Part shown: positions 16,694 through 51,647 of the stretch, piece by piece
Layout of the letters: each line of letters begins with the position of its first letter
How positions within the stretch are numbered: position 1 is the stretch's first letter
Assembly (NCBI GenBank): GCA_023105745.1
Contig: JALGQZ010000011.1
Location: 50,082,698-50,146,697 of the forward strand
Length of the DNA: 64,000 bases
Reading direction: 5' to 3'
Source: Austropuccinia psidii
Lineage: Eukaryota > Basidiomycota > Pucciniomycetes > Pucciniales > Sphaerophragmiaceae
Translations under genes and position numbers: made by a program
Notes under the pieces: generated by a model
Database searches by the model: none
Told to the model about the DNA's origin: nothing
The model's input: the letters and a program-made list of their open reading frames with translations, nothing else

Positions 16694-17189
16694 AATAGGT
16701 GGTGTCAAATAAAGGAAATCCCACATTAAAGAAAGTTTGATTTGAGACCAAAATCCCACATTCCAAAATCAGTAATTTTGTCTCCCAAAAAACACTTTTT
16801 TGAACTCAGTCCCCCAGGGATTTTGAAGAATACCAAATTCTTTCCTATACTTATTCAAACCTAAACTAAATTATTGGATATTTAAATTTTTATTTCAAAC
16901 CTAACCACTTCCCTTCTCCAAAAGTAAATTTTAACCCAACCCCTGGTGTAACCAATTAACCAATCTATTTACAATTCCATTCAATCTCCCCCTTTCTTAA
17001 ATTAGTCAATTACTGATTTATCACCCACTATCACTATCCTTGAAATTCCATGTCACCCAATGAAGCCAAACAAATACACTCCCAAGATTTCATCTGGCCT
17101 TCCCCATCCTTCAGGTCACTTAACTCTGCCTGATTATTTATGTATTATCAATTGGTTGATGCATAAATCACACTTTGATGCATGTTTCG

Positions 17190-18342
17190 GAACCAGTGGC
17201 TCCAAATAGGTGGTAAGTCCACCATCAAGAAAAAAGAATGGATTTCATCTTATGGCCATTGAGGTCAGTAAAAAATTACAACACTGGTTGAATCTCAGTG
17301 CAAAAAGAATTTTTGACCAATGGCATACATATAAGAAAAAATACACAACAGCAAAGTTTGATGATTTAACTGAGGCAGGTATAACAGAAGAGGATGAGAA
17401 AAAAGGGATGCATATTATGGCTGATAAGCTCTAAAGTATGTTCCCATGTTTTTCAGAAATGTATTCACTCTTTGGCCATAATCCAAATGTGACTCCACTA
17501 GCAACACATGATTCTCAAGAGGCTGGATTGATTTCAAATGAGGTTGAGGAAGAACCAATGTAACATGAAGTAAGATATGATACAATATTTTATTATTTGT
17601 GCTAAATTCTGATGTGTTGTTTCTTTTTAGGTTTTGGCAATAACAGAGGAGGGAACAATCACTATTAAACCAAAAATGAATATTTCTGAAGATAACTTGA
17701 ATGAAAATGTGGAAGATCCTGAAGTAAGATTTGTTTCATAAAACCAATACATTGTAATTAACTCTGAAATATTTTTTCTGTAGATAAAGGATAAGATTTA
17801 TTGTTCATCCCAAAAGAGAAAACATAGTTCCAGCTTCAATATTAATAATACCAGTGGCTCACGGAAGAAGGTGTATGATGTGTTGTCTCCAAGTTACTCA
17901 CAAATAATGATTGATCTGAAAAAAGGTTGGTAGGAGATAGATTTATTCTGATGTTCATGCATACTGATAAAAGATTTTTCAGGGAGAGAGGCTCATGATG
18001 AGGCCTGGTTAGAATGGGATAAACAAAAGTGGAATGAAGAACAGAGTTCTCAGATTATGAAAACTGAACAACAGAGATTAATGAAGGAGATGGAAATTGC
18101 ATTTGAACAGGAAAAAAATTCTAAGTGTAGAAAGCTGGAACAGTCTAAAATATAATCACAACTCAATTTTTATAGGGCCAAAGAGGCAAAAAAATGTTGA
18201 TTTTGAAAAAGAAAAATGGCAAAAAGAGGTTGAGATGTGTGAAAAACAACAGAACATGGACTTGACTATAGCATCATTGAATTCCTCCCATCAAATTTCA
18301 GACTTAGAGCTTATTCTAAATTTGATTAATGAAAAAAGTTGA
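17190..18342 (+). pseudogene. Harbinger ORF1: Myb/SANT-like (trihelix) DNA-binding protein, degraded
   Basis: The first recognisable block, around 17250-17435, includes WLNLSAKRIFDQWHTYKK and an acidic segment EEDEKKG. This pattern matches the Myb/SANT-like accessory protein that helps Harbinger transposases reach the nucleus and element ends. GT-AG introns are inferred at 17570-17630, 17724-17783 and 17926-17982. A charged helical tail (EAHDEAWLEWDKQKWNEEQ) follows at 17990-18110 and resembles NAM-associated C-termini. In-frame stops (TAA at 17561 after a Met codon, and others at 17434 and in the tail) show decay. Its position immediately inside the left terminus fits ORF1. Confidence 0.6.
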
Positions 18343-18344
18343 AT

Positions 18345-19489
18345 TAAGTGTTTTTTATTAGATATTATGCTTGTAATATGAGCGGTGACATTTGTTGACA
18401 GAATTTGTTTTCCCAAATAGGCACATTTTTTTATTTTATGGGTAAATGACCAATATATTTTCCAATTTGTGGATGATTAATTTGACAATGGAGGTGTCTC
18501 CTCACATAAGATGAGTAGGTACACCCATAGATTCAAATTATCAATTTCAAAGGATGTTGTTGTTTCTTATGGCATGTTTGGCCTTTAAAATTATTTTTGT
18601 GGAATTTAAAAAAATCTAATATATCCAGTGAGGAAGCAGAGGCTATGGTCATTTGGCCTTTTAATAAATGTGAATCAGATTTTTAAATGCTGAAAATGCA
18701 ATGCTAGTAAGAAAAATTATTGCCTATTTTTCTGAGGTTGAGAATAATTGATCCCTTGTTTAAAAATTGACGACATGTCCTTTGGAAAAGACAAATAGTA
18801 AGTTCCTCATTTTATTAATCCTTTTCATCATTTTTCATTTTTAAATAAATTCCTCCAGCTTTAATTTATCAATTGATTTCAAATTTAGCAGTCTTATCAA
18901 CAGACTCTTTTGTTTTGGAAGGATTTCAGCTCTTCAATAGGCCCAGAACTTGTAAGTGCATACACTTCCACTAATATTAATTTCCTTTTACTGTTGTTCT
19001 TTCAATCTTCACAGATTTTATTTGATCAAAAACCTTCTGTTGGGGTCCTTTGGTGACTGTTTTGTTGCATAATATCAGGTTACTCTTTGATAAGCAAGGG
19101 TATGTAAAGCCTTTGGTTTTTTTAATTACTTCATTGCACATTACCATAATTACTAATGCTCACTGTTGTACTGCCACATCCACCACCAATACAACCAACC
19201 AACTCCCACCACCTCCTCCATCACCACCATCATTCCAAAGCCTCCACCACCTCACCTAATCCAACAAAGCAAATGCCACAACCTCCACCACCCAACTAAC
19301 ACGACCTCCTGCAGCATTGGTCCAACACCTCCAACACCACCACCATTGCTTCAACATTTCCACCACCACCATTGATACAACAAAACTACTACCAACCACT
19401 TTACCATTAACACCAATCTACCAAATCTTCCATTAATGCAACCCTTATCTGACCACCATGGATCCACCATCTCAACCATTTATTGAAAT
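18345..19489 (+). other. 5' segment of the split TET-like gene, with intron and Pro/Thr/His-rich repeat
   Basis: From about 18760 this stretch is colinear with 24531-25070 upstream of the second dioxygenase copy: the shared landmarks are CTTGTTTAAAAATT, GTAAGTGCATACACT and a CACAG acceptor. The probable intron starts GTAAGTGCATAC near 18953 and ends at a CACAG near 19013. From 19150 to 19480 the DNA is rich in ACC/CCA triplets. It is cut at 19489 by the hAT insertion and resumes at 27476. Between 18345 and 18760 I see no gene. Confidence 0.55.
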
Positions 19490-19697
19490 CAATGCATAGC
19501 TTTTTGAAAATTTGTCGAATTTTAAGGGTCATCAAATATTCAATATTGAATTTCTGTCATGACCGAATATTAAGAATCGAATTTCACCTACCTTCAAATA
19601 TTCAAAATCAAATGTTTGAATATTTGAATATTCGGAAGTGAATTTTGAATTTTCATGGATACCTTCATTTATATATAATTAACCCTTTTGGGCATTT

Positions 19698-20040
19698 GGT
19701 AAAACCATAAAAACCCATTGGCCCTTAAGTTTTTTTGCGATAAATTATTAAATACACATAAAAAAACACTATGGGCTCCTTGTTTATGAAATAAATGGAA
19801 TTCTTATTCCATAACACAATTTATGGTATTTTTAATTCCCTTCAAGCCATTAATTTTATGTATGCATTTTTTATTCCATTAATTTCATTTATATTATTGA
19901 TGATACCATTAATATTACTTATGAAATTGTTGAGGCTATTCATGTTGCTTATGGAATTGCTGATGCTATTCATACCATTTTTATTGCATTTATCATGAAA
20001 TTCATGTGATTTATGGCATTTCAACAATCATTCAACCCAA
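19698..20040. repeat. Degenerate relic of the MULE-type MITE (left side of hAT)
   Basis: The segment begins GGGCATTTGGTAAAACC, similar to the GGGTGTTGGTAAA end of the MITE at 1422, and is followed by diverged units of ATTTATGG/GGCATT/ATTAAT like the MITE interior. No TSD could be fixed. Confidence 0.45.
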
Positions 20041-20111
20041 GAAGTTTCAAAAAAATATAGGCTTCTTGTTTTTGATTCTTAAGATTGAATGGATTTTTTA
20101 AAAATAATGAT

Positions 20112-20245
20112 GATTATTTATTTCAAAAATAGAATTCAAACAGAAAGGATCATTCATTTCAAATATATAATTCAAACAGAAAGGATTTTCTATTTCAAAA
20201 ATAGAATTCAAACAGGAAGTATTATTTATTTCAAAAATAGAATTG
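20112..20245 (+). repeat. 36-bp minisatellite
   Basis: Three to four copies of a unit containing TATTTCAAAAATAGAATTC and AAACAGAAAGGAT run in tandem with few changes. They lie between the left hAT end and the transposase stop. Confidence 0.8.
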
Positions 20246-20444
20246 TGATTTTTGGTCAGAAAACACTTATATCACTTGAATTTTAATTAGAGAAATTGCT
20301 AAATAATAATGTTCTGATTAATAGATTGAATCTAAAATCACTATAATAATAAGAAAAAATATTTTAATTTGCATAATTTTGGGATTTATTAAATTTTTTG
20401 ATTTCAAGAGAAATTCATTTAACGAGTAAAAATAATAAATGGAA

Positions 20445-22660
20445 TTATTGAAGATTATCATACCAAGCATACATACTTTCATAAATTCCATTATTTAACC
20501 AAGAACGTAAACACATATTTGCCTCCACAGAATCACAGGAAAGTGATGTGCGTTTGTTATTAATCAAGTTTCCAGCTTCTGAAAATACACCCTCACTAGG
20601 TGCTGAGGTTGCAGGTATTCCAAGGTAGTCTCTTGCAATTTGGGATAATATCAGAAACCTATTTTTGTGGCTCTTCCACCATTCAAGAATACATATTGAA
20701 TAATGTGGTGAATCAGTTTGTAAATATTCAAGAATTTCATTAGTTTTATTTTTTTGTTGGGAAATTCTTTCTTCAAAAGGATGCAATTGCTTCAGATTAG
20801 TCGGAACTGTTTCAGAAACCTGAGGTTCTTGTGGAAAGTTGATTGTGTATTCAGAAGAATATTCAGCATATACTTCTTTGAGATGTTTGAGTGCTTTGTC
20901 CTTATATCTTATTGGATTGGTATCACTGTTTCTTTCATCTTCTTGCAACAAATCATGCTGAGTAAACCATGTAAGCTTGAATCGTGGGTCAAGAATAAAG
21001 CACATAGCACAGGAATTTGATCTAATATTGTAATAAATTTCAAGCTTTGAATATGCTTGATCAGCTGCATCATAAAGTTGGGATTCCCTTGAGACTTAAT
21101 TTTTTGTTTTTTGACATGTTTCAAGGAGTAGTTGGTACCAAGGCATTACTAACCCAAGTGAGGGATAAGAATAACCTTGAACTTCATTGGTTGCAGTGGC
21201 AAAGACCTTCAGAAATTCTGATATTTGTTGAAAAAATGTCCAGTCCTCTTCCAAAATTACATCCTGAATAGTTAGAAAGGAATGAAGTGAGATTTATTAT
21301 GCAGAAAAATAATCAACTAGGCAGACGTACAAGGCGTATATCATGATGAATGTCTGCTTTTTCTATTGCCTGGTAAATCGTTTTCTGTTTCTTGCTGCTA
21401 AATATTTTTTGGCTTGAACTTTTAAAGTGATTTGTTTTTTGCTTTGATGTTTGAGACTTATTGTACTCATAAATAAAATCATCAAAAGAGCTCTTCTGCT
21501 TTAATGCTGAACAAAGCATTGAATATGTTGAGTTCCATCTGGTGGAATTGTCAGCCATTGGCCGGTTTGGTGGATCTTTATTTTTTTTCACAGATGCTTT
21601 TGAAGTGTTTCCATGAGGTGTTTGATCGATGTATTAAGTGAACCACCTTCTTAACCTTATCAATTGATCCATCAAGCTCCTTTAAAGAATCCTTTGCAGC
21701 TAAATTAAGAATATGGGAAAAACATCAAATGTGTGAGTCAAAACCTTTCAGCAAATTATTTTTAACAGAAAGGTCCATAAATGTTGTATTTGAGGAAGCA
21801 TTATCCAATGTTATGGCCATGATTCAATTACCAATGGATGAGATATCCAAACTATAAAAATCATTTGACAAATTGGACAAATTGCTTTCAGTTTCTGAAG
21901 ATGAATCACTTGAGGTATCTATTTCAATTGCATCACGCTTTGATCCCCTTGGCTTTTGAGAGTGTTCAATAAAGAAATCATTAAGCATATCCACGATTTT
22001 TGTGTATATTTTTTTACCAGTATGAGCTTCTGTGAACTTGGAAAATCCAACGGTTGCAGTGAATGGTTTCCAATCAGATGATATGTAATGAGCTGTGAGA
22101 ATAATATACGACATTCCACCTGGACCAGACCAAATGTCAGTAGAAAATGAGAACCGTGGTGCTTGTGAATTGATAAAGGCAAATATATGTTCTTTATCAT
22201 TCAGAAACTTTTTCTTGATCCGTTTGGAAATTGTGGTTTCAGAAATTAAGTTAATGTCCTTGTTGAGGGTGTGAATAAGCTTTTGAAATGATTTTGATTT
22301 AACTAATGCATATGATTGTTGATCTTGAATTATGAATCTGACAAGATTATCAGTGGAATTATTCTGTAAGTGGACATTCATACTTTTTATTATGCTTCTT
22401 CCATGTGAATTTGATAAGTTACTTTGTCCTTCAGTGTTCTTTTTGGCAATTGCTTCAGCCCATAGCTCCTTATGAAATGCTTTCAAATGAGATACCAGTT
22501 TTTTCTTGGTTCCTTCATGTTGCTTAATTTTCTTTGAGCATTCATCGACTAGGCATAACTGGTATCCATTCTTTGCTTGGGAAAAATAACATTGTGCAAT
22601 CTGACTTTGGTTTACTTTGGAGTTTGAAGAGTGATTTTTTGTGCAAGACCGTGAAATTTG
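20445..22660 (-). pseudogene. hAT transposase (BED finger, DDE, dimerisation domain), broken
   Basis: The N-terminal BED zinc finger is read from about 22650 to 22490 (CLVDECSKK...HLKAFH). An open segment at 21824-22486 covers the start of the catalytic region (FSFSTDIWSGPGGMSYI). A broken middle follows. The segment 20445-21005 carries MCFILDPRFKLTWF and the C-terminal hAT dimerisation domain, with WWKSHKNRFLILSQIARDYL and PATSAPSEGVFSEAG. Frameshifts near 21010-21125 and 21590-21820 and several stops separate the open pieces. As the only transposase inside ends with an 8-bp TSD, it is the likely mover of the element at 19490-27475. Confidence 0.85.
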
Positions 22661-22904
22661 ACTGGCTTATTCATTGGGATTTATTAGGGAGCTTATTTGA
22701 CTCATATTAAGAATTAGATAAAGATGTATTAGGTAAAATGAATATTAGTTTGAAGAGAGTGGATCAAAAACAAATTCAACATGCCCAAGCCATATAAAAT
22801 AATTAGGGTTAGGATGTATTTAATGTGGAAACATATTCATTATGCATAAATTTGCATGAAATTTAACAAATCACTATCAGACTTGATTAATTTAATAATG
22901 ATTC

Positions 22905-24530
22905 ACTCATTATTTATTATTTATTGTTTGATTACTTATTAATTTATATAAATAAAGCAAAAATACAAAACAAATGAATAAAAATCAAATAAAAGATCAT
23001 AAAAATAATGAATGTCATTAATTGTCATTCATCATAATTAATTTCAATTCATTATCATTAATGGTCATTAATTCTCATTAATTATATTTTAATTATTATT
23101 TATAATTAATGAAAAATAATGAAAATTAATTAAAATTAACTATAAATAATGGCAATTAATGATAATTAATTAAAATTAATTATAATTAATAATAGTTAAT
23201 TAAAATTAATTATAATTAAAATATAATTAATAAAAATCAAATAAAATTAATTATAAAATGAGAATTAATTATAATATAATTAATGAAAATTAATGAAAAT
23301 TAATTAAAATTACTGATAATGAATTAAAATTAATTATAACTAATGACATTTAATGATAATTAATTAAAATGAATTATATTTTCATTAATTATCATTAATT
23401 TTCATTTTATAATTAATTTTGTTTAATTTTCATTAATTATATAATTAATAATAATTAATTTTATTTAATTATTCTTAATTATAATCAATTTTAATTAATT
23501 TTAATTAATTATCATTAATTATAATTAATAATAATCAATTTTAATTAATCTTAATTAATTATCATTAATTATAATTAATTTTAATTAATTTATTAATTTT
23601 AATTAATTTTCATTAATTATAATTAATTTTAATTAATTATCATTAAATTAATTATAATTAATAATAATAATTATTATTTTTAATTAATTATAATTAATTT
23701 TAATTAATAATTAATTAATAATTGATTATAATTAATTTTAATTAATAATTAATTAATAATTAATTAATAATTAATTAATAATTAATTAATAATGAATTAT
23801 AGTTAATTTTAATTAATAATTAATTAATAATTAATTAATAATTAATTATAATTAATTTTAATTAATAATTAATTAATAATTAATTATAATTAATTTTAAT
23901 TAATAATTAATTATAGTTAATTTTAATTAATTATAATTAATTAGAATTATAATTTCTTTTAAATTAATTTTAATTTTGATTATAATTAATTTTAATTAAT
24001 TATAATTAATTTTCTACATTTAATATTAATTATAATTAATGAAAATTATTCAAAATTAATTATAAATAATTATAATTAGTTTCAATTAATTATAATTAAT
24101 AATTAATTAATAAATAATTATAGTTAATTTTAATTAATTATATTTAATTATAATTACTTTTAATTATAATTAATTCTAATTATAATTTACTTTAGTTAAT
24201 TATATAATTAATTTTAATTAATTATAAATAATTTTCATCAAATAATATTAGTTATAATTAATTATAATTAATGAAAATTATATCAAATTAATTATAAAAA
24301 ATTATTATTAGTTTTAATTAATTATAATTAATAATTAATTAATAAATAATTATAGTTAATTATATTTAATTATAATTACTTTTAATCATAATTAATTCTA
24401 ATTATAATTTACTTTAATTAATTATAAATAATTTTCATGAAAATTATATCAAATTAATAATAAATAATTATTATTAGTTATAATTAATTAATAATTAATT
24501 ATAGTTAATTTTAATTAATTATAATTACCC
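22905..24530. repeat. A/T satellite based on TTAATTATAATTAA
   Basis: About 1.5 kb is almost free of G and C and built from variants of AATTAATTATAATTAAT. Up to about 23365 the plus strand is A-biased (AATTAATTAAAATTAA). After a palindromic centre near 23370 it becomes T-biased (TTTTAATTAATTATCATT). The two halves are thus in inverted orientation. It directly abuts the truncated Harbinger/TET copy at 24531. Confidence 0.85.
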
Positions 24531-25133
24531 CTTGATTAAAAATTCACCACACATCTTTTGTATAAGATTACTAAATTCTTCAATTGGGTAATTTTTTTCA
24601 ACAGTCTTTCTTTTTAAAACAGTTCCTCAAGTTTTGATTGATCAATTCATTTCAAAATTTTTTTTTTGGAAGCTGTAGGTGCATACACTGCAACTGATCT
24701 TAACTTTCTTGCACTGATGTTCTTTCATTATGCACAGATAGTACTTTTGAAAAAAAAACGTGTTGGGGGGCTTTTTTTTTAATAGCAACGGTAAGCCCTT
24801 TCTTTTGTTGTATTTACGCAGTAGTCATTACGGTACTGACTACTGCTTACTGTCCCACCACCTCTACCACCTCCCCCTCCACCCATCCACCATTCCCACC
24901 ACGGCCGACCGGCCACTACCACCACCACCCACTACCCTCACTGCGGATTGGCCACCACTACCACTACCGCCTACCGGCCACCTCCACCACCAACTGGCCA
25001 CCTCCCCCCAACTGTTATTACTGACGCCACACCACCACCTCCTCCACCGCTGCAACAACATATACCACTAATAATTTTTCTTTTGAAATTTAGGGGAGGA
25101 ATGAAAATTTTGGAATATATTATATCTGCAATA

Positions 25134-26405
25134 ATGACATCACCTTCAAACAACCAACTCCCCCTTTCTTTAGCCATTTCTCATCAATCATCTGATCATT
25201 TGACTGTTGGGACTCAACCAAATGACCAGATGATTGTCAATGAGCTGAATGTGCCCAAACTCTCTTTAATTACTCATTATGTGAAGCCTGTTGGGACTCA
25301 ACCTCACAATCAGAATGATATAACAGAAGAGAATTCTCTTAATCATAATCACTCAAATACCAGACAACAAAGAAGAATGCTTTCTTATATGAACCAAACA
25401 GCAGGCCAGCTTGGCCTTTACAATCCCAACTTCTTCATAATTACACTAGACAAGAAGAACAATGAGAATGCCTCCTGGTTAAAGCTTCCTCCACACAAAC
25501 TTCTTCCCAGACCCTATGTACTTATCAATAGACATAACAAGCCTTATTTACCTATTTTCATGTATCAAATTCACCCATTCAGCAGTCCAACACCAGTCTT
25601 CCATAAACTTCAAAAATTGATCATAACATTAAATAAGCTTGCAAAGAACCATCAAAATATCACCACTAACTCTGATATGCTTGATGGCATTATGAAAGGA
25701 ATAGGATTTTGTCAGGGTTCTGATTCTGGTAAATCTGCTGGGGTTTATGCAAGGAAAGCGGGCTTGACTAAAAAAACAATTGATGAAGATAATGAGCAAT
25801 GGTCAACACTTCAAGAATTTGATGAATTCATTCACTCCCGAATTCAAGGTTTTTCACATAATGCACTTAAAGACAATCAAGAAATCATGAATGCAGCCAA
25901 TTTGCCAAACTTCAGCCAACTTGAATGGCATTCCAACAAATCACTGAATTTCAAAACTTATTCTTATGTTATAGTTAATTTCAATGGCTTCCACAATAAA
26001 CCACATACTGATAATAAGGACATCAATTCATGGACATATGGTATATTATCTTTTATCAATAAAAACAATTTCATTCCAATTCCTACAGATTTCACACCCT
26101 CTGGGCATGGATTATCATTTCCCAACCACAAATTCATTTTTGATTTTTCCAAAAAAGAAGGCATTGTTGAAATACTCTGGAAAACGTCTGAAATTCTTCA
26201 TCAAACAACCAGGCCAGCAAAAGAATTGCTTGAAAACCAATCCATAACACACTTTGGTTGTTCTTTTCAAATAAACAAGAAATTATTTCTCACAGGAAAA
26301 AAATTCAAACAACTCAGCTCTGAAGAAATTGAAACAAAAGTCAACAGTCAAATCATGCGGAATGAACAGGATAACAAAAGATTACATAAAAATAAAAAAT
26401 TGTAA
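25134..26405 (+). CDS. TET/JBP-like 2OG-Fe(II) dioxygenase (transposon cargo), intact frame
   Basis: The 423-residue frame begins at ATG 25134 (MTSPSNNQ). I chose this start because the other copy has its ATG at the same point, and the upstream open frame is CCA-repeat plus a likely intron acceptor (TTTAG). The C-terminal half shows a double-stranded beta-helix signature: FHNKPHTD with His291-x-Asp293 as iron ligands, GHGLSFPNHKFIFDFS, and GIVEILWKTSEILHQTT with the distal ligand His356. This layout matches the Tet-like 2OG-Fe(II) oxygenase family that is expanded in rust fungi. Such enzymes oxidise methylated bases in DNA using 2-oxoglutarate and O2; the substrate here is unknown. The N-terminal 150 residues have no assigned domain. 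Another 2OG oxygenase class is possible. Confidence 0.75.
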   Translation: MTSPSNNQLPLSLAISHQSSDHLTVGTQPNDQMIVNELNVPKLSLITHYVKPVGTQPHNQNDITEENSLNHNHSNTRQQRRMLSYMNQTAGQLGLYNPNFFIITLDKKNNENASWLKLPPHKLLPRPYVLINRHNKPYLPIFMYQIHPFSSPTPVFHKLQKLIITLNKLAKNHQNITTNSDMLDGIMKGIGFCQGSDSGKSAGVYARKAGLTKKTIDEDNEQWSTLQEFDEFIHSRIQGFSHNALKDNQEIMNAANLPNFSQLEWHSNKSLNFKTYSYVIVNFNGFHNKPHTDNKDINSWTYGILSFINKNNFIPIPTDFTPSGHGLSFPNHKFIFDFSKKEGIVEILWKTSEILHQTTRPAKELLENQSITHFGCSFQINKKLFLTGKKFKQLSSEEIETKVNSQIMRNEQDNKRLHKNKKL

Positions 26406-26587
26406 ATATTTTAGATTATATATATTTACACATTTGATAATTATGATTCAATTCCAGTCTTAACATTTACCATTCCATAGATATGGATTGAAAATGTATT
26501 ACAAATATTAGTCTTCAGATAATTCTCTTTGAAAATAAACATGTTTTATTAATCTTAAAACATTGTCAGCGCTTGTAATTGATCTAT

Positions 26588-26830
26588 TCATTTATTCCTG
26601 AACCAATCTAAAGTGTAGGGCTTGACTATTTCATGCATATTCAGATGGCCATTTTCATCATCTTGTTGTGTGATATTTTGGAGCTCGGGGGGGTCATTAT
26701 CCTCATATAAATCACTCCATTGGTCACCTACTTGTGCTAATAGATTATGCAATATAACACAGGTTACCACCCACTGTACAAATAATTGTACCTCTTTCAC
26801 ATTACGCATTTGATTTCGCATAATAACCAT
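26588..26830 (-). pseudogene. C-terminal fragment of a PIF/Harbinger transposase
   Basis: The minus-strand frame reads WVVTCVILHNLLAQVGDQW, the conserved end of DDE_4 (Harbinger) nucleases, and is nearly identical to the last part of the transposase at 39483. Only about the last 80 codons remain. The gene is convergent with the dioxygenase gene, with 182 bp between the two stop codons. Confidence 0.85.
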
Positions 26831-26950
26831 TATTTCAAGCCTGGTTATTCAGTTTTATTGTCTTCAATTGATTTCAATTACCTCCAATTTATTGAAATTC
26901 ATTTCAATTAATTGAAATCATTTTCAAATACTCATATTTATATGGGTTAT

Positions 26951-27250
26951 TGGTCAACCCATGTAAGTAATTTGGCAAAAACATTTAATCCCTTATGTGG
27001 ATTTGCCATAAATTGCCAAAATTATGCAATTATTTAGTAACAAAAATAAGGTTTGTCTTCTAGTTGAAGTTAAGCTAAAGAATACAACAGTTGGTAAAAG
27101 CCCAATTTATGGCATTGTTGGTTCCATAAATTGCATAAATGGAATGATTTATGCCAGCAATAGGATAAGTGCCGTTGTTGATGCCATAAATATTCTTTGA
27201 ATACCATTTATGGCATGGTTATCCTGTGGTTGATGCCATAAATATCATTT
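26951..27250. repeat. Degenerate relic of the MULE-type MITE (right side of hAT)
   Basis: The start GGGTTATTGGTCAACCCATG and the next landmarks (TTTGGCAAAAACA, CCCTTATGTGGATTTGCC) follow the order of the MITE terminus at 1422. The interior again has ATTTATGGCATTG-like units. No right end or TSD was found. Confidence 0.5.
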
Positions 27251-29005: not shown

Positions 29006-29109
29006 GTACTTTAGATTATATATATTTACAAATTTGATATTTATTATCCAATTCCAGTCTTAAAATTTACCATTCCATACACATATATTTAAAATTTATT
29101 ACAAATATT

Positions 29110-31032: not shown

Positions 31033-31047
31033 TTTGGGGGCCTGGCC
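31033..31047 (+). promoter_or_regulatory. Primer-binding-site-like sequence
   Basis: TTTGGGGGCCTGGCC lies directly after the 5' LTR. The identical 15 nt follow the LTR of the gag-only element (61540-61555, minus strand). TGGGGGCC would pair with a tRNA ending in CCCCCA, but I cannot name the tRNA. Confidence 0.6.
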
Positions 31048-31420
31048 ATGTTTTTTGAACCTTGTACCCTTAATTAATATATTTTTAAGTTCTAAAATAT
31101 ATTAATTTAATATTTTTTTTCTTCAATTTAAAGAAAAAATTATTTTTATTTTTGAAATTGTCTTAAAATCTTATTTCATTGAGGAATTTGGTTTAATGTT
31201 GTACTGTTTTTACATGTGGCTTTTTCACATCCAAAAACTTATAAAATTATTCTTTGAGTTACTCTGACTTAATTTTTTATTCAAATTCTTAAATTTTAAT
31301 ACTTTTTTCTTTGAAAAGAATATTTTTTTTAATATCAAAAAATAATAAAACTTATAAAAAATCTTTTAAAATATCTTGAATCATAAAAAATAATTTCTTT
31401 TATCATATTTTCTCTTTAAA

Positions 31421-32401
31421 GTGTCTTTAATAAAATACTGTGCAGCTGGCAACAGACTCAGTAAAAGATACATCACTAGTCCTGAATCTTCAGAAGCAGA
31501 ATCTGAAGAAAGTATTGAGGTGCAAATTGCTAAAAGAGGCACCTTATACAACTCAGAAAAGAATAAATTACTACCAAAAGGTGTGTTTTTATCTTTAAAT
31601 TTACTCTTTATCCTTGAATTGACGTAAAAATGGTGCATACCAGAAATGGAAGCAACTATTCATTCCAACCAGATGGATGTGGACACGCAAGAGGCAAGAC
31701 CAAATCCAGAAGTGCCAAATCTTCCACAAGAAAGACACATCTGGAGGATGCCAGAGTTGCCCCCCATTCCCCAAGGTCTGTACCAACAGATTTTGACGTG
31801 AATTCTGAGCCTGAACTAATTCATGATATTATTTCCAGGGCTAAACCATTTTCAAGTGGCAGCAATAGAAATATATCAATTCCAGTACAAGAATTGGTTC
31901 AGAGCAGCCAAAGAGGAGGAGTGGGAAATCTGCCCAAGCCTTTGGCAGGGGGCCATGAACTCCTACTTACACATAAAGAGCTTTCTGGGTCAGGAGAAGA
32001 CCATAGAACTCTTAGGAGGATGGAGCCCCCTGTCTTGCAAAGACAAGGTCAAAAAGATAAAGAATTGGTTGAAGAACCAAAGTCTTTTATCCATAGACCA
32101 GAAGAAAGAGTTGGAAATGACTCCAGCTTTGGAGACAGAGGCACCAGTGGCATCCACCAGCTCCAAACCAGCTCCCAAAGTGTCCAAGGACAAGCCCAAG
32201 GGACCTCAGAAGAAGCAGAAAGGTCCCAAGAACCATCGAGGCAAAGGAAAAAGCAAAGCCAATTGGCACAGACCTTACCCACAAGGGTACAGGATCCCCA
32301 AATTGGAGCCTTCAGCCATGGACAGTGTCTTTAATATGGCCAGGACTCTGATGGAATTCACAGCCAAAGAGCAGGAAAGGATGAACAGAAACTTTCCATG
32401 A
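31421..32401 (+). CDS. Gypsy leader/gag-like protein in the second frame (spliced)
   Basis: Open sequence 31421-31580 (acidic/Ser: PESSEAESEESIEVQ) joins in exact phase to 31839-32401 through a GTGTGT...TTTCCAG intron of 258 bp, to give LLPKG/LNHFQ at the junction. The second exon has a globular-looking part (QYKNWFRAAKEEEWEICPSL, then WSPLSCKDKVKKIKNWLKNQ) and a very basic tail (KGPQKKQKGPKNHRGKGK), suggesting an RNA-binding Gag-like role. It ends at TGA 32399-32401, which overlaps the ATG (32398) of the frame leading to the gag core. The first exon has no clear ATG (the frame opens with GTG), so an upstream exon or other start is needed. It overlaps a different open frame, 31630-32334, and which one is translated is unresolved. 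Confidence 0.5.
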
Positions 32402-34092
32402 AAATAATTGGTGTACAGACTAGTATTAATGTAGAAATTGGTAAACTTGATGGCAAGTTAACTAAAATTGCATCAGATATAGTTGAATTAAAGAAAAATG
32501 ACAAGAAATACATTGAATTGAACCAAGTGACAAATGCCAAACTTGACTCAATTACCAATTCTTGCATAAGAATTGAAAACATGTGCCAAGTTCAGCATGA
32601 GGAGATGGAAGATCTTTCCATTTTGAGAATGAATGATCAACTTAAGACTCTGCAAGACCATGTCTTGAAGATAGTTGAGAATACCAATCAATTTGCTATA
32701 CAATTAGCGAAAAGTGAAAGTGAAAGGCAGAAGTTGAAGAGTGAAATAATTGCAAGTGTGGAACAAATTCATAAGGATCATGAACCACATATGCCAAGAC
32801 ATTCTACACCTTTAACTGAAGAAAAACTTTCTGTTAAAGAAAGTCTCACCCCATTCTTGGGAGAAAATGCCTACTCTGCAAGAGATATTCCCAAAATAGA
32901 ACAATGGCCAACATTCTCTGGTGAAGGAGAATACAACCATATTGAATTCATCAGGACTATTGACATGTTGCAAGAAGACTTTAATATACCTGATGAAATC
33001 ATAGTGGGAAAATTACATTGTCTGTTTACCAGAACTGCAAAGAAATGGTATTACAAAATGAGGATTGATCATGGTAAACATGATTGGTCTTGGTGGAAAT
33101 CTGAAGTGATCACCAAATGGGCCAACGATTCTTGGAGGTTTAAGATAGAAAATGCCTTTGAGAGTGCCATTTTTACCTCAGAGAAAGATAAACCACTTAC
33201 TTGGTTCTTCACACAAAAAGACAGATTATCTGCTTTACAACCAGATATGTCTGACACTATGATTAATATGAAAATATTAAGAAAGTGTGGAGGAGAATTA
33301 GAACATGCTATCAAAAGCAGATGTGTAGAACCCTGTTCAACAGAAGACTACATTAATGCTATGGAAGATATCATTGCCAGAACAAGAATTGGTAAAACTT
33401 GGTCTAAAATCCCAGCAGAATCCAAGATGACCTCCAAGATTCCCAGGGAGGATAAAAGACCAGAAAAACCTGTCTTGAAGTGTCATAAATGTGGAAGAAC
33501 TTCACATTTAGCCAACACTTGCACAAAAAAGACAAAAATCAATGAAGTTCAAGTCATTGAAGAAGTTCAGTGTACTGAAGAGAAGGAAGAATCTGATCAA
33601 GGTTCTGCAATCTCTGAAGATACACCAGTGGAGGACTATCCCATTGAAAACATCACAGCTTTTTTTGAATTCACTGAAGTCCATACCCACTTGCCACAAT
33701 ATAGTGAAGATTGCTACAACCTTATTAATGTTCAGGATGCCAGAATGTGTAAACCCAAACCTGCTAAAGGAAAAGGTTATACTTCTGGAGCATCTTGTAT
33801 CACATCAATTCTGATGAATAATGTTGAAGCCAAAGTCAATTTGGATACAGGAGCATTTTGCACTTGTGTAGGAAAAGATTATCTCCAAGCTATACTTCCT
33901 GAATGGAAAAACCATCTATTACCAATGAGAGGTGTACAATTTAGTAGTGCCAGTACCAATATGTACCCTTTGGGTATACTAGACACTACTCTTGTATTTC
34001 CCCATCCAACAGGAAGTATAAGAATGAAAGCTGAGGTTGTAGTAATGGACAACTGCACATCTCAACACACATTCTTGGAAATGATTACCTAA
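31630..34092 (+). pseudogene. Gypsy gag and aspartic protease frame, with one stop
   Basis: The frame starts at ATG 31630 (AAAATGG context), reads a Ser/Gln/Arg-rich segment to TAA 32332-32334, and resumes in the same frame. The ATG at 32398 begins the part with clear Gag features: a coiled-coil-like stretch, WPTFSGEGEYNH, a capsid-type region (LHCLFTRTAKKWYYKM), and a zinc knuckle CHKCGRTSHLANTC (C-x2-C-x4-H-x4-C, near 33480). The protease core is LDTGAFCTCV at 33841. It ends at 34092 because of a frameshift just before the conserved end of the protease. Gag packages the RNA and the protease would mature the polyprotein. The TAA stands where I would expect CAA in intact relatives (inference). 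Confidence 0.85.
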
Positions 34093-34178
34093 GTATTTAT
34101 GGTATTGACATCAATAACCATAAAGACAGATATTTCACAATTGGGGATAACAAAAGACAGAAATTTTCCTTCTCCAAT

Positions 34179-35348
34179 ATGCCAAAGCAAATATCAGTAG
34201 TATCTTCTGAGAAAGATACCTATAAAGAAGAATTTGTGTCCACACAACTTGTTGAAGCACAAATTAATCAATCATTGTCACCAAAAATGAGGAATGAACT
34301 TATTGATGTGTTATACACGTACAATACTGAATTTGCCTCTGATAATGAACCATTGGGTGCTATAAGAGGACATGAAGTTGATATTACTCTTAGTATTGAC
34401 AGACCATATCCCCCACTACTTAGGAGACCAGCTTATCCAGCCAGTCCCAGAGCTAGAGAAGCCTTGGAGAAACATATCCAAGAGTTAATTCAACTTGGTG
34501 TACTAAGGAAAGTAGGCCATAATGAGGAGGTTGAAGTAACAACACCTGTTATCATTGCTTGGCATAATGATAAGTCAAGAATGGTTGGAGATTTTAGAGC
34601 TTTGAATACCTACACAGTTCCAGATAGGTATCCAATCCCTAGAATCCAAGAAACCTTGACTCAATTATCTAAAGCCAAGTATATAACATCAATGGATGCA
34701 TTAAAAGGTTTTCATCAGAATGTTTTGACGCCTAAAGCTAAGAAATTACTTAGAATTATCACTCACTGTGGTATTTTTGAGTATCTTAGAATGCCATTTG
34801 GCATTAAAAATGCTCCATCTCATTATCAAAGAATGATGAATACCATCTTCCCCACAGAATTGTCTGAAGGATGGCTTATTATTTATATTGATGATATTAT
34901 CATATGTTCTGACTCATGGTCTTTGCACCTTGAAAGACTTGCAAAAGTACTCCACAAAGTTGCAGAAGTGAATATGAAAATTTCACTTAAGAAATGCAAC
35001 TTTGGTTTTGAAGAACTTAAAGCATTAGGACATGTTGTTTCTGGTTTGAGCTTGGGTATTGACAAGAATAAAGTGGCAGCAGTGCTACTTAAGCCAATAC
35101 CCCAGAATAAGAAGGAAATGATGTCTTTTCTTGGATTTGCTAGTTACTATAGGCAACACTTAAAAAACTTTGCAATTCTAGCCAAATCACTCTATAGAAT
35201 CTGTGATCAACAGACTATATTTGAAATGACACAGGAGAGAATTAAAGCTTATGAGGAAATAAAGAAAGCCCTTACAGAAGCACCTTTACTCCTCATGCCT
35301 TACTGGGATATTCCTTTTAAGTTGTACATTGATGCATGTGGAGATTGA
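34179..35348 (+). pseudogene. Gypsy reverse transcriptase
   Basis: This is the RT domain of the pol polyprotein. It contains the [15 protein letters not shown] entry motif, [17 protein letters not shown], the [16 protein letters not shown] palm motif and the catalytic box YIDDIIICS (near 34887), followed by the RNase H start LYIDACGD. The frame is shifted by one register relative to gag (break near 34070) and stops at TGA 35346-35348 within RNase H. Both are single lesions, consistent with the young LTRs. Confidence 0.95.
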
Positions 35349-37337
35349 TTAGGGGCAGCCCTACATCAAGTCCAAATTATTAATGACAAACCTACAGAAG
35401 GACCAGTTTGTTATATCTCAAGACAAATCAAACCAACAGAAGCCAGATATGGTGCAAGCCAAATGGAGTGCTTATGTTTGGTATGGGCACTTGAGAAATT
35501 ACACTATTACCTTGATGGCAGTGTTTTTGAAGTGATAACTGACTGTAATGCAGTAAAATCACTTCTTAACATGAAAAATCCCAACAGACATATGTTGAGA
35601 TGGCAAATAGCTATTCAAGAATATAGAGGAAACATGACAATAGTTCATAAAGCAGGAAACATTCACAAGAATTCTTATGGACTTAGTAGATGGGCTTTAG
35701 CCAACACTCCTGATAACCCAGCTTATGTACCTTTGGAAGCTGAACCACAGATTCCAATTGAAGGAATTAACATAACTGATATTGGGACTGAATTCTTTGA
35801 GGAGGTCAGAGAATCTTATAAACAAGACAAGAATTGCCATATCTTGACTTCTTTATTAGATAAAGACTGCAAGGACACATCTTTAGTTAATGCACTTGAT
35901 GAAGTTTGGAAAAATTCCTATTCTGAAGGAAGATTTCACTTGTTTGATGGGATCATTTACCACAGAACAAAACATTCTTTTGTTATGACATTGTGCAGTA
36001 GATTACTTATCAATACCATTCTTCATGAATGTCATGATAGTATCTACTCTGGACACCTGTCAGAAGACAGAACACTTGAAAAAGTGAAGAACTGTGCATG
36101 GTGGCCATCTTGGAGAAAAGAAACCATTGAATATTTCCATACCTGTGACAGATGCCAAAAAGCAAACAGGAGTACAGGCAAGAAATTTGGACTTATGATC
36201 CATATTCAAGAACCAAAATCCCCATGGGAAGTTGTTCACATGGATTGGGTCACAGCACTTCCTCCAAGTGGTGACAGAAGTTATAATGCTTGTTTAGTCA
36301 TAGTAGACAGATATAGCAAAACTCCCATATTCTTACCATGTCATAAAGATGACACTGCTATGGATACAGCTCTTCTTTTATGGAGTAGAGTTATTTCTCA
36401 TACAGGATTATTTAATAATATCATAAGTGACAGAGATCCTAAATTCACATCTGCACTTTGGACCAATCTTCATAGATCGTTTGGGACTAAGTTATCATTC
36501 TCTACAGCATATCACCCTCAAACAGATGGGCTAGCAGAGAGGATGATTCAAACTTTAGAAGACATGATCAGGAGATTTTTTGCTTATGGATTAGAATTCA
36601 AAGACTCAGATGGCTTTACCCATGACTGGTGCACTCTGATACCTGCATTAGAATTGGCATATAAGACATCAGTCCATTCTTCCACAGGACAAACTCCTGC
36701 TATGTTAGAGAAAGGATGGAATCCAAGACTCCCAGCAGACACACTGAGAAAAGACTTGATTGAAATTCATACTACAGCTTCCAGCTTCAAAATAATGCTT
36801 GATAAAGTAAGACTTCATGCAAAACAAAGTATGGATGATGCTTTTAATTATGCAAAACAGAAGTGGGACAAGAGTCATAAAGTACCAGACTTCAAAGTAG
36901 GGGACTTAGTTTTAGTTTCAACCTTGAATTTTAATAATATCAGAGGCCCAAAGAAACTTAAAGATTCTTATGTAGGACCTTTTGTTATTGTTGCTTTACA
37001 TGGAACCAATGCAGTTCAAGTGGAATTGAGTGGTGAATTGGAAAATAAACACCCCACCTTTCCAGTCAGCTTGATAAAGCCTTATCAACCAGCTGATAAA
37101 GAATTGTTTCCTTTAAGAAACCCAACTCCTTTAACTGTAACACCTGTGGAACAGAATGAAGACAAAAAGATAAAGAAAGTCATTAAAGAAAGGAGACTTA
37201 GGGGTAAAAATCAAAGAGAATATCTTGTCAGATATAGAAATCCAGTACATGAAGATGAATGGATGGCAGAATCAGAAATACCTGACTCAGATAAACTCTT
37301 AAGAAGATTTAGACATGAAAGAAGGCCACAAGCCTGA
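35349..37337 (+). pseudogene. Gypsy RNase H, integrase and chromodomain
   Basis: This continues the RT frame after the stop at 35346; the first Met is at 35463. RNase H motifs include [11 protein letters not shown] and [15 protein letters not shown]. The integrase has an HHCC zinc region (HECHD...SGH ... CDRCQ), catalytic DWVTALP, SDRDPKF and the Glu of [14 protein letters not shown]. The C-terminal segment around [14 protein letters not shown] and [11 protein letters not shown] is a chromodomain, which in chromoviruses directs integration to modified chromatin. Except for the single upstream stop, the reading frame is intact. Confidence 0.93.
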
Positions 37338-37465
37338 ATATGTCTATAAATGTGCTTTAAATTACTTGATCTGAGTGATGTGAAGAGGTTGGACAGTGGA
37401 CATTAACCCCCTTTGAGGCCTTATTCTTTTATCACTAATAAAATTGTAGTACAATTTTATTTCTT

Positions 37466-37477
37466 GGTGGGAGGGAA
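37466..37477 (+). promoter_or_regulatory. Polypurine tract
   Basis: GGTGGGAGGGAA lies directly before the 3' LTR, the expected plus-strand primer site. Confidence 0.9.
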
Positions 37478-39400
37478 TGTGAGCCTTGAGGTATATTTTA
37501 CATGCCCAAATAGGCCACAATTATCTTAAAAAGAAATTTTGAATTATACATAACTCATAAATCATGCATATATTCAAAATTCATCATTTTTGATTTCAGA
37601 AAAGATGAATAACTTTTTATTGAGTAAGTAAATCCATGGATTTAAGGCCAGATTTGGATTCTACACATAAATTCACCTAGGGTAGCTCCATAGAGTGAAT
37701 AAGCTCAAATTAACTCTTTAAGGTGGTAATATGGAAAATACTTCAACACCACATCATTAATACCACATAAAAGATCCGTGAAAATTTTTGTTTTTCTTGA
37801 TTTTACGCCAAAATAATGGGAAAGTGAGAAATCCCATGTTACATATACACTAAGAATAGTGTTATACATGTTTTGAGCACTTAATATTATGGTATTCTTA
37901 CATGCACTTTTGGTACACCCATAGTGGATATCTCACTTTAAGCTTAAATTTCTATTTTTACGTGAAAAATAAGCAAGGGGGACAAAAGACATCAAAGAGA
38001 GCCAGGGTACCCAACTTCTGAGGCCCCAGAGGCCTGGATAGCTCCAAAGCTTGGTTCCATGGCTGATCTTGACCCAATTGGTAAACTAAACCTCTTTGGG
38101 AACTTGGTTACCAAGTTACAACTACTGTAAAACACCAGAAAATAGCAAATAACCTGCTATTTTGATGTGCCAAGGAGGTAAAAAGCTACTTACACTCCTG
38201 TAACCATGTCAATTACTAATGACTTTCCATGAATAAACCCCAAAAGAGTAATCAAAACCCTTTCTGGACTAGTATCCATTGATTTACCTCATAACAACCA
38301 GTCAAACACTGATATTTGCAATTCTATGTAGAAATGAGGTAAAAACTTCAAAAATTCATTAAAAATACAAATCTTGATGAATATTTCTGAAACATTCAGG
38401 ACCAATTGAGAACTGTATTATCTATGGTACAACCAAAAAGAATTACAGTTTTACTAAGAAAATTAAAAGTTTTACTTACAGTCCATTTTTGGTTATTCTA
38501 CGTGAAACACTGAATCTTCAAAAATTCACAGTAATTAAAACCTGTGATGAAATTGGCAATAACATTGATAACTTTGAGAAATCAATGATTATTTTGGAAT
38601 AAAAGAAGATTTACTGATGTTACTCCTTTTATTCTTAACCATATTGGGGTTGGTAGTCACATAAAAGCATCAATCAAGTAATTATGATAATCTTACGTGA
38701 CAACAGATGATGCAATAATTACTCCAAAAAGGTTTATTGTTTTCTCACTCACTGTTTTTTCAGTTTGCTCCATGGCACGCCTCTGTGAGCTGTTGTTGAC
38801 TTAAAAGAAGCCTCTTATTGCTGTTTTTTCCGTATCATCATCTTATTATCATTTTATATCATTGTTACCAACAAGTAAGTATTAGTTAAACTATTCTTAA
38901 GTGTTTTAAATCTTTCAGAATCAACCAGAAAGACGTGAAATCATAGAATCCAACTATATATTGTTTTAATCCTGCTATAAATCATTTTGATCTTATAAAT
39001 CCACAATTCTACGTCAAATTTCTCTACTTTTATCTATCAATAAGTTCTTTGGAGTATTAGTGAGTCATTTATCTTTAATTCTTAAAGTTTTTCTCTAGTA
39101 ATAGTTTTCTTCAAGGATTATCTTTATAATTATTCTTGCAAAAGATAATTATATATTAAAATAATTTTATTCTTTTAATAAAAGAAGTTTTTATTATTAA
39201 ATTCTTCTTGTAATTGATTCTTGTAGACAATTACTTGCTCACTGTTAAAATCACTAGTAGTGCTTAACATGTGAAAGAAATAATTATTTAATTATTTAAT
39301 TGTGGTTATAATAATATTTTATTATTATATTTCATAAGAACAGACATAGTACTGTTGATTAATAGTAATATTATCATCAGTTTCATAGTCACATCTTACA
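37478..39400 (+). repeat. 3' LTR of the gypsy element
   Basis: 1923 bp, the same ends as the 5' LTR, followed immediately by the ATATT duplication at 39401-39405. The densest differences from the 5' LTR lie at 38670-38825. Confidence 0.97.
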
Positions 39401-39482
39401 ATATTAGTCTTCAGTCAATTTTCTTCCAACATGAACATGTTTTAGTAATCTGAAAAATGCTCCGCATTTTTAATTAATTCAT

Positions 39483-40681
39483 TCATTTATTATTGAACCA
39501 ATCTAAAGTGTAGGGCTTGACTCTTTCATGCGTATTCAAATGGCCATTTTCATCATCTTGTAGTGTGATATTTTGGATCTTGGGAAGGTCATTATCCTCA
39601 TGTAAATCACTCCATTTGTCATCTACTTGTGCTAATAGATTATGCAATATAACACAGATTACCACCCACTGTACAAATAATTTTACCTCTTGCACATTAC
39701 ACATTTGATTTAGAATCTCATGAAAAGATGACCACCACCCTTTCAAAACACCAATGGAATGTTTGATCTGTACTCTTGATATTTCCAAAAATAGATTGAA
39801 TTTTTGATTATCTTCTTAGTGGGATGTCAAACCTTTGTATGCTGGCACAATCCAATGGGAGCTTGAATAAGCTGAATCTGAAAGTAGATATTCATCTTTT
39901 CCATAATATTTATGTGGATATTTGGATCTTTTAATATGTTGGTACATATTTTAATCATGAAGAGACCCCGCACAGCCAAAATGTAGTGAAATAAACATTC
40001 TATTGACATAAAAAACTAATTGAATTTACATTGAATACCTAAATCACATCTATTATCAGCTCAAAAATGGTTCAATAAAATATGAATAGAATAAATACCT
40101 CTTCTTGTGATCAAAGTATTCCTCACCATCTCTGGGTGTCCTTTGAGACAAAGGTATAAAAATACCATCTATAAATCACACACATCCAGGAAACCCTTTG
40201 GCTTGAATTACTTGGGAAGTCTCCAATCACTATTGTGAATTGGGCCACATAATATATTCCTTTTCATACTTGATTAATGCTTTGATTATATGTTGTGTAT
40301 ATAATACAATGGCCCCATGACTAACTCCAAATAGCATTCCTAGTTTTCGCAAAGAGGCCCCATTCTTATTGAATCCTAATTGTGTGGTTGGATCTCTCTT
40401 TTTAGATCTTGATGAATTGTGAAAAATTGTATCATCTTGAATCAGGGAAACTAACCACTAGAGAGATTCATGAGTAGTAGAGCAGAGTTGTTTTAATTTA
40501 TGATTTGATAACTGGACCAAATCGCTGGAGTTGTATATATATATGCAGTTTGGGTAATGAGATAGTGTAACAGTGATACATCTTCTTCCAGTTCTGAATC
40601 AATATCAGATTCTATGAGAAGGATATTCTTCATGGCATTTAGTTGATGAAGTAATGGGATTCTTGCTGATGTTTTTGGCAT
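39483..40681 (-). pseudogene. PIF/Harbinger (DDE_4) transposase, degraded
   Basis: Reading the minus strand from 40681 gives an N-terminal segment; FNKNGASLRKLGMLFGVSHG (near 40330); FPGCV.FIDGIFIPLSQ (near 40165, first catalytic Asp); an intron from about 40103 to 40042; YLLSDSAY..HWIVPAYKG (near 39880, second Asp); ISRVQIKHSIGVLKGWW (near 39750); and WVVICVILHNLLAQVDDKW (near 39640). Stops (for example at the TAG near 40458 and in MWPNSQ) and frameshifts disable it. By family it would bind the TIRs with the Myb/SANT protein and insert at 3-bp sites. It faces the dioxygenase gene; removing the gypsy insertion leaves 181 bp between them. Confidence 0.88.
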
Positions 40682-40739
40682 TTTTCAATATTTATATATT
40701 TGAATTCTATTGAAAAGAATTTTGTCTAAAGAAATTTAT

Positions 40740-40979
40740 TCAAAGCTAAACTCCCTGGGTGAGGTTTTTGTGCACCATTTTTAAAAATTCAGCCATCATA
40801 GACTGGGATTTCAAGGGTTATAATTTGGGATTTTCAGACAAAAATATAGGTTTTTACATGTTAAAAATACCACTTGTCAGGGGGTGTGTTATTTGGAAAA
40901 TCTCAGAAATTGAATTCCACATTTCAGGAAAAAAATTTCAAGATTTAAAATGCAGGATTTCATATGTTTGACACCCCCT
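40740..40979. repeat. Right terminal region of the Harbinger element
   Basis: The inverted terminal sequence ends GTTTGACACCCCCT at 40979, matching AGGTGGTGTCAAA at 16697. A second CAGGGGGTGTG-type motif at 40875 faces the terminal one, giving a roughly 100-bp sub-terminal inverted repeat; a small MITE at this place cannot be excluded. Confidence 0.6.
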
Positions 40980-40982
40980 AAT

Positions 40983-51605: not shown

Positions 51606-51647
51606 TTTTCTTTGACTTATTAGTATTGTGCTTAGGTGAATGAAAAT

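What the first reader, a model, noticed from the sequence alone, without database searches (positions are those of the whole stretch)
16697..40979. A Harbinger-type transposon that carries a TET/JBP-like DNA dioxygenase gene
Seen: two copies have the dioxygenase gene (plus) convergent with a Harbinger transposase (minus), with 182 and 181 bp between the stop codons once the gypsy insertion is removed. Terminal repeats and an AAT duplication enclose the first set together with a Myb/SANT-like ORF1. The iron motif H-x-D (residues 291 and 293) and distal His356 are clear in the intact copy. Known: fungal TET/JBP-like genes have been linked mainly to KDZ transposons. Inference: here the enzyme is Harbinger cargo and could remove or alter base methylation on the element or its targets, an anti-silencing strategy.
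Basis: partly seen in the sequence, partly recalled or inferred. Interest (0 to 1): 0.88.

Follow-up and report, generated by a model that had tools for sequence, protein, structure and literature searches.

The report
Transposon carrying another transposon's TET gene
In a rust-fungus genome, a high-copy jumping gene of one superfamily (hAT) carries a gene for a TET-like DNA-modifying enzyme that it took, with a cut-off end of the neighbouring gene, from a jumping gene of another superfamily (Harbinger), so such possible anti-silencing genes can be seen passing between mobile elements.

Summary
The window is nested: a decayed Harbinger B (16698-40978, TA flanks, broken TET-like dioxygenase) holds a hAT element A (19490-27475; ends CAATGCATAGCT; 8-bp duplication ATTGAAAT; hAT transposase) and a gypsy (29110-39400). 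The intact dioxygenase is in the hAT; the "Harbinger transposase" beside it is a 77-codon stub. Of 30 dioxygenase loci cut out (window included), 29 end in the hAT terminus; 5 of 8 two-ended copies have perfect 8-bp duplications. Other Harbinger copies do carry the dioxygenase. The hAT shares a ~2.3-kb block with them (up to 97.6% identical). In one search, 14 rows all stop at one base inside the Harbinger transposase gene; 9 of these are loci with the hAT end. Best reading: one capture, Harbinger to hAT, then amplification. TET-carrying hAT and Harbinger elements in rusts are already published (PMC12730594); apparently new are an 8-bp hAT in Austropuccinia and a recent, directional transfer with a scar. 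The anti-silencing role is inferred, and hAT copies show strong CpG decay.

The parts
16698..40978 (.). Element B: decayed Harbinger-type transposon (about 6.0 kb without its two insertions); ends GGTGGTGTCAAA / TTTGACACCCCC, TA at 16696-16697 and 40979-40980
   Evidence: right part 84-89% identical to 39 other genomic places
17006..18342 (+). Remains of Harbinger ORF1 and a second reading frame (no Myb/SANT by Pfam)
19482..19489 (.). 8-bp target duplication ATTGAAAT, left of hAT
19490..27475 (.). Element A: hAT transposon, 7986 bp, ends CAATGCATAGCT / AGCTATGCATTG
20445..22666 (-). hAT transposase in pieces; Dimer_Tnp_hAT in 20445-21005
   Evidence: open pieces of 476 and 282 aa in L045
23095..24527 (.). 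AT-rich minisatellite (10-bp unit ATTAATTAAA); its right edge is the left border of the captured block
24528..26820 (.). Block captured from a Harbinger: dioxygenase with upstream region plus end of the convergent transposase gene
25134..26405 (+). Intact Tet-like 2OG-Fe(II) dioxygenase, 423 aa from the ATG at 25134 (open frame from 24840; 485 aa from a TTG at 24948); H291, D293, H356
26588..26820 (-). Stub: last 77 codons of Harbinger transposase
   Evidence: 81% aa identity over 75 residues to element B; 98-99% nt identity to L043/L044 over 121 bp
26821..27475 (.). hAT right part
   Evidence: present in 36 of 42 loci then held; the 6 without are upstream pieces
27476..27483 (.). 8-bp target duplication ATTGAAAT, right of hAT
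27744..29005 (+). Broken dioxygenase of element B (6 stops, 19-nt deletion)
29110..39400 (+). Gypsy-type LTR retrotransposon in element B; LTRs 1923 bp, 98.1% identical; duplication ATATT at 29105-29109 and 39401-39405
39483..40684 (-). Broken Harbinger transposase of element B
   Evidence: DDE_Tnp_4 E 0.0045, below its cut-off; the matching ORF in L044 has DDE_Tnp_4 E 9.9e-20

Best explanation
A rust-fungus hAT transposon with 8-bp target duplications acquired, most likely in one event, a ~2.3-kb piece of a TET-carrying Harbinger transposon: the dioxygenase with its upstream region plus the last 77 codons of the convergent Harbinger transposase. The piece joined beside an AT-rich minisatellite in the hAT and spread with it (88 dioxygenase matches scored, a lower bound that includes two Harbinger copies). 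Shown: both element structures, the shared block, a fixed right border, the high identity, and recent insertions that keep the reading frame. Inferred: a break at the AT-rich tract was repaired from a Harbinger template; the enzyme oxidises a modified base in DNA; and it helps the element at the time of expression or transposition in a genome that methylates young transposons, rather than protecting it for good.
For: hAT ends: 29 of 30 loci (window included; L022 the exception) carry AATAGCTATGCATTG with up to 3 substitutions about 1 kb behind the gene, followed by different flanks. Both ends found in 8 copies: perfect 8-bp duplication in 5, 7/8 in 2. hAT transposase: Dimer_Tnp_hAT 6.3e-24, Hermes 9.7e-13. 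Donor: complete Harbinger copies with dioxygenase and transposase, 24 end-to-end rows, 7 of 7 right ends fetched blind. Block: hAT A matches L043/L044 at 95.5-95.7% over 25074-26820 and 86-93% in pieces over 24528-24873, nothing else at E 1e-8 (minisatellite left out of the query). Border: 14 of 14 hAT-like rows end at base 1486 of 2201; 9 of the 14 are loci with the hAT end. Direction: the stub is the end of a gene that is continuous in L044. Recency: up to 97.6% identity across superfamilies; two young insertions with perfect duplications, dioxygenase open to codon 420 and transposase pieces of 476 and 282 aa. Substrate context: young A. psidii transposons carry 5mCpG (PMC12774611, passages).
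Against: One of 8 two-ended copies has no matching duplication, and in a ninth (L032/L042) no left end was found. No TET-free ancestor of this hAT was found; that search did not complete. hAT monophyly of the block is not resolved against an X-type hAT plus Harbinger grouping (p-AU 0.588 and 0.325), so repeated exchange is open. 5 of the 14 rows were not cut out. The left border lies at a repeat and is less exact. Function: dN/dS up to 1.0 in single pairs; CpG decay in the hAT copies is strong, so lasting protection is not seen; no activity test; fold models poor.
Confidence: 0.85

Rival explanations
1. One reading: a single Harbinger transposon with the dioxygenase as cargo accounts for both sets in the window.
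For: Harbinger ends enclose everything; other Harbinger copies carry the gene; 182/181 bp spacing in both sets.
Against: hAT ends, 8-bp duplication and hAT transposase bound the intact copy, and the same right end closes 29 of 30 loci. The transposase of the first set is only a stub.
Confidence: 0.02
2. Reverse direction: the hAT had the dioxygenase first and Harbinger took it.
For: The block is a near-polytomy; some hAT copies (L047, L048) are as close to Harbinger as to other hAT.
Against: The hAT holds only the end of the Harbinger transposase gene, which in L044 is continuous with its catalytic domain. The window Harbinger, at 89-91% an older branch, already has gene and transposase together.
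Confidence: 0.04
3. Several captures or later gene conversion between the hAT and Harbinger families rather than one capture.
For: X-type hAT blocks are 97.0-97.6% identical to L043/L044 and 96.9-97.7% to other hAT rows compared; grouping X with Harbinger is not rejected (p-AU 0.325).
Against: One right border in 14 of 14 rows, and X-type copies share it and the hAT backbone. Any later exchange would lie inside the block.
Confidence: 0.25
4. The dioxygenase is a passenger without function for the element, or acts on another substrate (6mA, thymine, RNA).
For: dN/dS near 1 in some pairs; 12 of 30 rows have stops before codon 420; CpG decay continues; substrate unknown.
Against: Triad in 30 of 30 rows and 18 of 30 rows open to codon 420; recent insertions keep it; dN/dS 0.30 between two open lineages; kept in 29 of 29 Harbinger right ends that could be judged.
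Confidence: 0.35

Closest known systems
TET+ PHISTA Harbinger families of rusts, A. psidii included (Kojima 2025, PMC12730594)
   Same: Harbinger-type transposase, TA duplication, Tet-like gene, a third protein without Myb/SANT; same species among those listed. Element B and L043/L044 very probably belong here.
   Different: Sequences of that paper (supplements) could not be compared.
TET+ hAT7 families of Puccinia (PMC12730594)
   Same: hAT transposon carrying a Tet-like gene in a rust.
   Different: hAT7 has 7-bp duplications and is reported in the main text from six Puccinia species; three named families have both genes in one orientation. Here 8-bp duplications, Austropuccinia, genes in opposite (divergent) orientation.
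PHISTA to ESTA-1_PCor transfer (PMC12730594)
   Same: A Tet-like gene moved from a Harbinger to another transposon superfamily.
   Different: There about 80% identity, stated to be the only pair above 70%, and no signature at the ends. Here up to 97.6%, a truncated donor transposase and one right border.
KDZ transposons (Kyakuja, Dileera, Zisupton) with TET/JBP genes
   Same: Fungal transposons with such a gene.
   Different: The transposases found beside this gene are hAT and DDE_Tnp_4.

Membership tests
hAT superfamily (element A) | hAT transposase with C-terminal dimerisation domain | tested here: met
   Dimer_Tnp_hAT 1.4e-21 and 6.3e-24; Hermes match 9.7e-13
hAT superfamily (element A) | short terminal inverted repeats and 8-bp target duplication | tested here: met
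   perfect in 5 of 8 two-ended copies, 7/8 in 2, not in 1
hAT7 (PMC12730594) | 7-bp target duplication | tested here: not met
   8 bp, with perfect CAATGCATAGC / GCATTG ends in the window copy
Harbinger / PHISTA (element B, L043, L044) | DDE_Tnp_4 transposase | tested here: met
   L044 9.9e-20; window pieces only sub-threshold
Harbinger / PHISTA (element B, L043, L044) | TA target duplication | tested here: met
   3 of 3 copies with TA on both sides, in AT-rich flanks, so weak on its own
Harbinger / PHISTA (element B, L043, L044) | place in the PHISTA clade of the transposase tree | not tested
   reference sequences are in supplements that were not available
Nuwa-type Harbinger with Myb/SANT ORF1 | Myb/SANT domain in the second protein | tested here: not met
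   no Pfam hit at E 1 in the window; only DUF7801 E 0.015 in L044
TET/JBP-like dioxygenase | Tet-like 2OG-Fe(II) domain | tested here: met
   PF20515 1.7e-31
TET/JBP-like dioxygenase | HxD...H iron-binding triad | tested here: met
   30 of 30 rows; H291 and D293 invariant in 11 of 11 rows of A2
TET/JBP-like dioxygenase | double-stranded beta-helix fold like TET/NgTET/CcTET | tested here: inconclusive
   models pLDDT 43.1 and 52.4; no Foldseek match at E 0.001; no PDB sequence match up to E 10
TET/JBP-like dioxygenase | oxidation of 5mC or another base | not testable with these tools
   needs enzyme assay

The most novel reading that the evidence does not exclude
Tet-like genes circulate between transposon superfamilies within one genome as a shared counter-silencing module. 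Here a hAT recently robbed a Harbinger, and the capture was followed by amplification of the hAT. The near-polytomy of the block (X-type hAT as close to Harbinger as to other hAT) would fit continuing exchange between the two families, with AT-rich minisatellites as entry points.
Probability: 0.25. Interest if true: 0.78.

Novelty: new variant of a known kind. Interest (0 to 1): 0.58.

Why it matters
How an accessory gene passes between unrelated DNA transposons was so far inferred mainly from trees; PMC12730594 found no signature at the ends of the shared segments. Here donor family, recipient family, right border and truncated donor gene sit in one genome at up to 97.6% identity, so the way of capture and its effect on copy number can be studied directly. 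The genome is reported to methylate young transposons (PMC12774611, passages), so an anti-silencing role can be tested with existing methylation data.

Tried and rejected
Single-Harbinger reading: rejected for the intact copy by the hAT ends. AAT duplication: TA in three Harbinger copies. Myb/SANT ORF1: no support. KDZ carrier: no dedicated search; the transposases beside the gene are of other kinds. Structure route: two poor AlphaFold models and no Foldseek match. PDB sequence searches with the dioxygenase: empty. Protein search with the broken transposase of B: no candidate. NCBIfam: only sub-threshold matches. TET-free hAT relatives: search did not complete. Clade test: undecided. Protection from CpG decay: not seen.
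Full report
ORGANISM. The window lies at G000:C11:50082698-50146697 of a 1.015-Gb genome. All named protein relatives of the dioxygenase are from Austropuccinia psidii MF-1 (41 of 42 hits named, 118 of 120; the rest carry no name), so the organism is almost certainly the myrtle rust A. psidii (inference).

WHAT IS IN THE WINDOW. Three elements are nested. The outer one, B, is a Harbinger-type element, 16698-40978, with ends GGTGGTGTCAAA and TTTGACACCCCC, TA on both sides, and about 6.0 kb without its insertions. A hAT element, A (19490-27475, 7986 bp), has inserted into the region upstream of B's dioxygenase; its ends match over 12 bp (CAATGCATAGCT) and it has the 8-bp duplication ATTGAAAT. 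Behind B's dioxygenase a 10.3-kb gypsy element has inserted (29110-39400; duplication ATATT; LTRs 98.1% alike). From left to right A holds a hAT transposase on minus (Dimer_Tnp_hAT), an AT-rich minisatellite (23095-24527), the intact dioxygenase on plus, a stub of Harbinger transposase on minus, and the hAT right part. B's dioxygenase has 6 stops and a 19-nt deletion relative to A's.

THE REAL CARRIER OF THE INTACT GENE. One search scored 88 genomic matches to the dioxygenase (of 10,236 first-look candidates, so a lower bound). Thirty loci were cut out, L001 being the window copy itself. In 29 of 30 the sequence AATAGCTATGCATTG, with up to 3 substitutions, follows about 1 kb behind the gene and is followed by different flanks; L022 is the exception. 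I looked for both ends in the window copy and six others and in two young ones. Both ends were found in 8 of these 9. The duplication is perfect in 5 (window, L031/L037, L035/L041, L008/L045, L024/L046), 7 of 8 letters in 2 (L034/L039, L036/L040) and absent in 1 (L033/L038). In L032/L042 no left end was found. Random 8-mers from these loci agree 8/8 at 2.8e-4 and at least 7/8 at 2.0e-3. The two young copies (9488 and 12317 bp; 98.2% identical over 5.5 kb) have the dioxygenase open to codon 420 of 423 and hAT transposase ORFs of 476 and 282 aa; the 282-aa piece matches Hermes transposase over 68 residues (E 9.7e-13). The intact dioxygenase is therefore cargo of a hAT family.

THE DONOR. B's right part has 39 further scored matches, 84-89% identical. 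L043 and L044 were read in full. Both have Harbinger ends with TA flanks, an ORF1 and the dioxygenase (PF20515 2.3e-36 and 4.1e-31); L044 has DDE_Tnp_4 at 9.9e-20 on the other strand. Window element A matches them at 95.5-95.7% over 25074-26820 and at 86-93% in pieces over 24528-24873, and at E 1e-8 nowhere else, the minisatellite having been left out of the query. The right border is sharp, after GATTTCGCAT, with 98-99% identity in the last 121 bp. The left border is the edge of the minisatellite and less exact. A Harbinger query across dioxygenase and transposase gave 41 rows for 40 scored loci: 24 match practically from end to end (91-100%, L044 itself included), one covers 353-2201, one is split (1-379 and 467-2201), and 14, the window included, stop at exactly base 1486 of 2201. 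Nine of these 14 are loci with the hAT end; the other 5 were not cut out. One border in 14 of 14 rows argues for one capture. To see whether Harbinger copies without the gene exist, I cross-matched the 40 right ends by hand: 20 have the gene, 1 more, the window copy is split by the gypsy, and of the other 18 I fetched 7 without prior evidence; 7 of 7 have it, two interrupted by insertions. Eleven were not examined.

DIRECTION AND AGE. The stub is the last 77 codons of a transposase that in L044 is continuous with its catalytic domain, so the gene went from Harbinger to hAT. Over 25075-26509 the block is on average 97.5% alike among 30 hAT rows, 94.9-95.0% between them and L043/L044, and 89.5% to the window Harbinger; the 30 hAT rows form one clade in that tree (99.8/100, three Harbinger rows only). 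A further hAT group (L047, L048), noticed because its dioxygenase resembles the Harbinger one, has the hAT backbone and the same right border and is 97.0-97.6% identical to L043/L044 over 25134-26820. With it included, hAT monophyly is not resolved: p-AU 0.588 for it, 0.325 for X with Harbinger. Repeated exchange or conversion inside the block is not excluded.

MECHANISM. Shown: block, right border, direction, spread. Inferred: a break at the AT-rich minisatellite was repaired by copying from a Harbinger. The nesting of A in B is a later insertion, as its perfect duplication and the 88.8% identity of the two genes show. The enzyme has the HxD...H triad in 30 of 30 aligned rows; residue 360 is Arg in the window and Lys in the other 29. 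Six of the other 29 are stop-free and 11 more stop only at codon 421, so with the window 18 of 30 are open to codon 420; 12 are not. dN/dS is 0.43-0.54 in group means and 0.30 to 1.0 in single pairs: weak evidence of constraint. A. psidii is reported to carry more 5mCpG in younger transposon families (PMC12774611, passages seen). In 30 hAT rows, C-to-T at CpG (either strand) is 211 of 1153 cells (18.3%) against 0.55-1.32% at other C, which fits past methylation and decay of this family. CpG observed/expected is 0.25-0.57 in five hAT copies and 0.06-0.12 in parts of B. The cargo thus gives no lasting protection; at most it helps when the element is expressed or moves.

PRIOR WORK. PMC12730594 (Kojima 2025; abstract, parts 1-4 of 7 of the text, figure legends and found passages read; supplements not available) already reports TET-carrying hAT7 (7-bp duplications, six Puccinia species), TET-carrying Harbinger named PHISTA (TA; A. 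psidii included; third protein without Myb/SANT), transfers between superfamilies, and the anti-silencing proposal. It states that only one pair from different transposons exceeds 70% nucleotide identity (~80%) and that the ends show no signature. A search for Austropuccinia, dioxygenase and transposon returned that paper alone; 'TET dioxygenase' with 'hAT transposon' and fungi returned none; KDZ names returned 11 papers, of which only this one has them with TET/JBP in its abstract (listing). Its Table S1 may hold A. psidii hAT families that I could not see.

VERDICT. The concept is known. The particular case, an 8-bp hAT in Austropuccinia with a Harbinger-derived TET gene, a donor stub, one right border and up to 97.6% identity, appears new and is the clearest transfer of this gene that I met in these searches.

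Noticed in passing
2338-4329 (+): MULE transposase domain (PF10551 E 2.6e-28) in a 663-aa open frame: another DNA transposon in the window.
   Followed up: no
29110-39400: Gypsy element with RT, integrase and a sub-threshold chromodomain match (E 0.0014); its LTRs differ at 37 of 1923 positions.
   Followed up: partly
23095-24527: AT-rich minisatellite inside the hAT (GC about 7% over 22900-24600), with inverted arms; possible entry point of the captured block.
   Followed up: partly
57137-58500 and 61607-62967: Direct repeat pieces 88-91% identical, about 4.47 kb apart; nature not determined.
   Followed up: no
50845-52283 (-): Retrotransposon remains (GAG-pre-integrase E 0.0052, below its cut-off).
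   Followed up: no
25134-26405, residue 360: Arg in the window copy, Lys in the 29 other rows; near the distal His356 and perhaps the 2-oxoglutarate site (recalled, not tested).
   Followed up: partly
L004, L006, L008-L012, L015, L018, L024, L025, L029 and others: A hAT subgroup whose dioxygenase ends at codon 421; some members are nearly identical (L008, L010, L024, L029), a sign of recent spread.
   Followed up: partly
proteins P0009, P0025, P0044: At least two further Tet-like lineages in A. psidii, about 55% and 37-41% identical to the window protein; their carriers were not examined.
   Followed up: no
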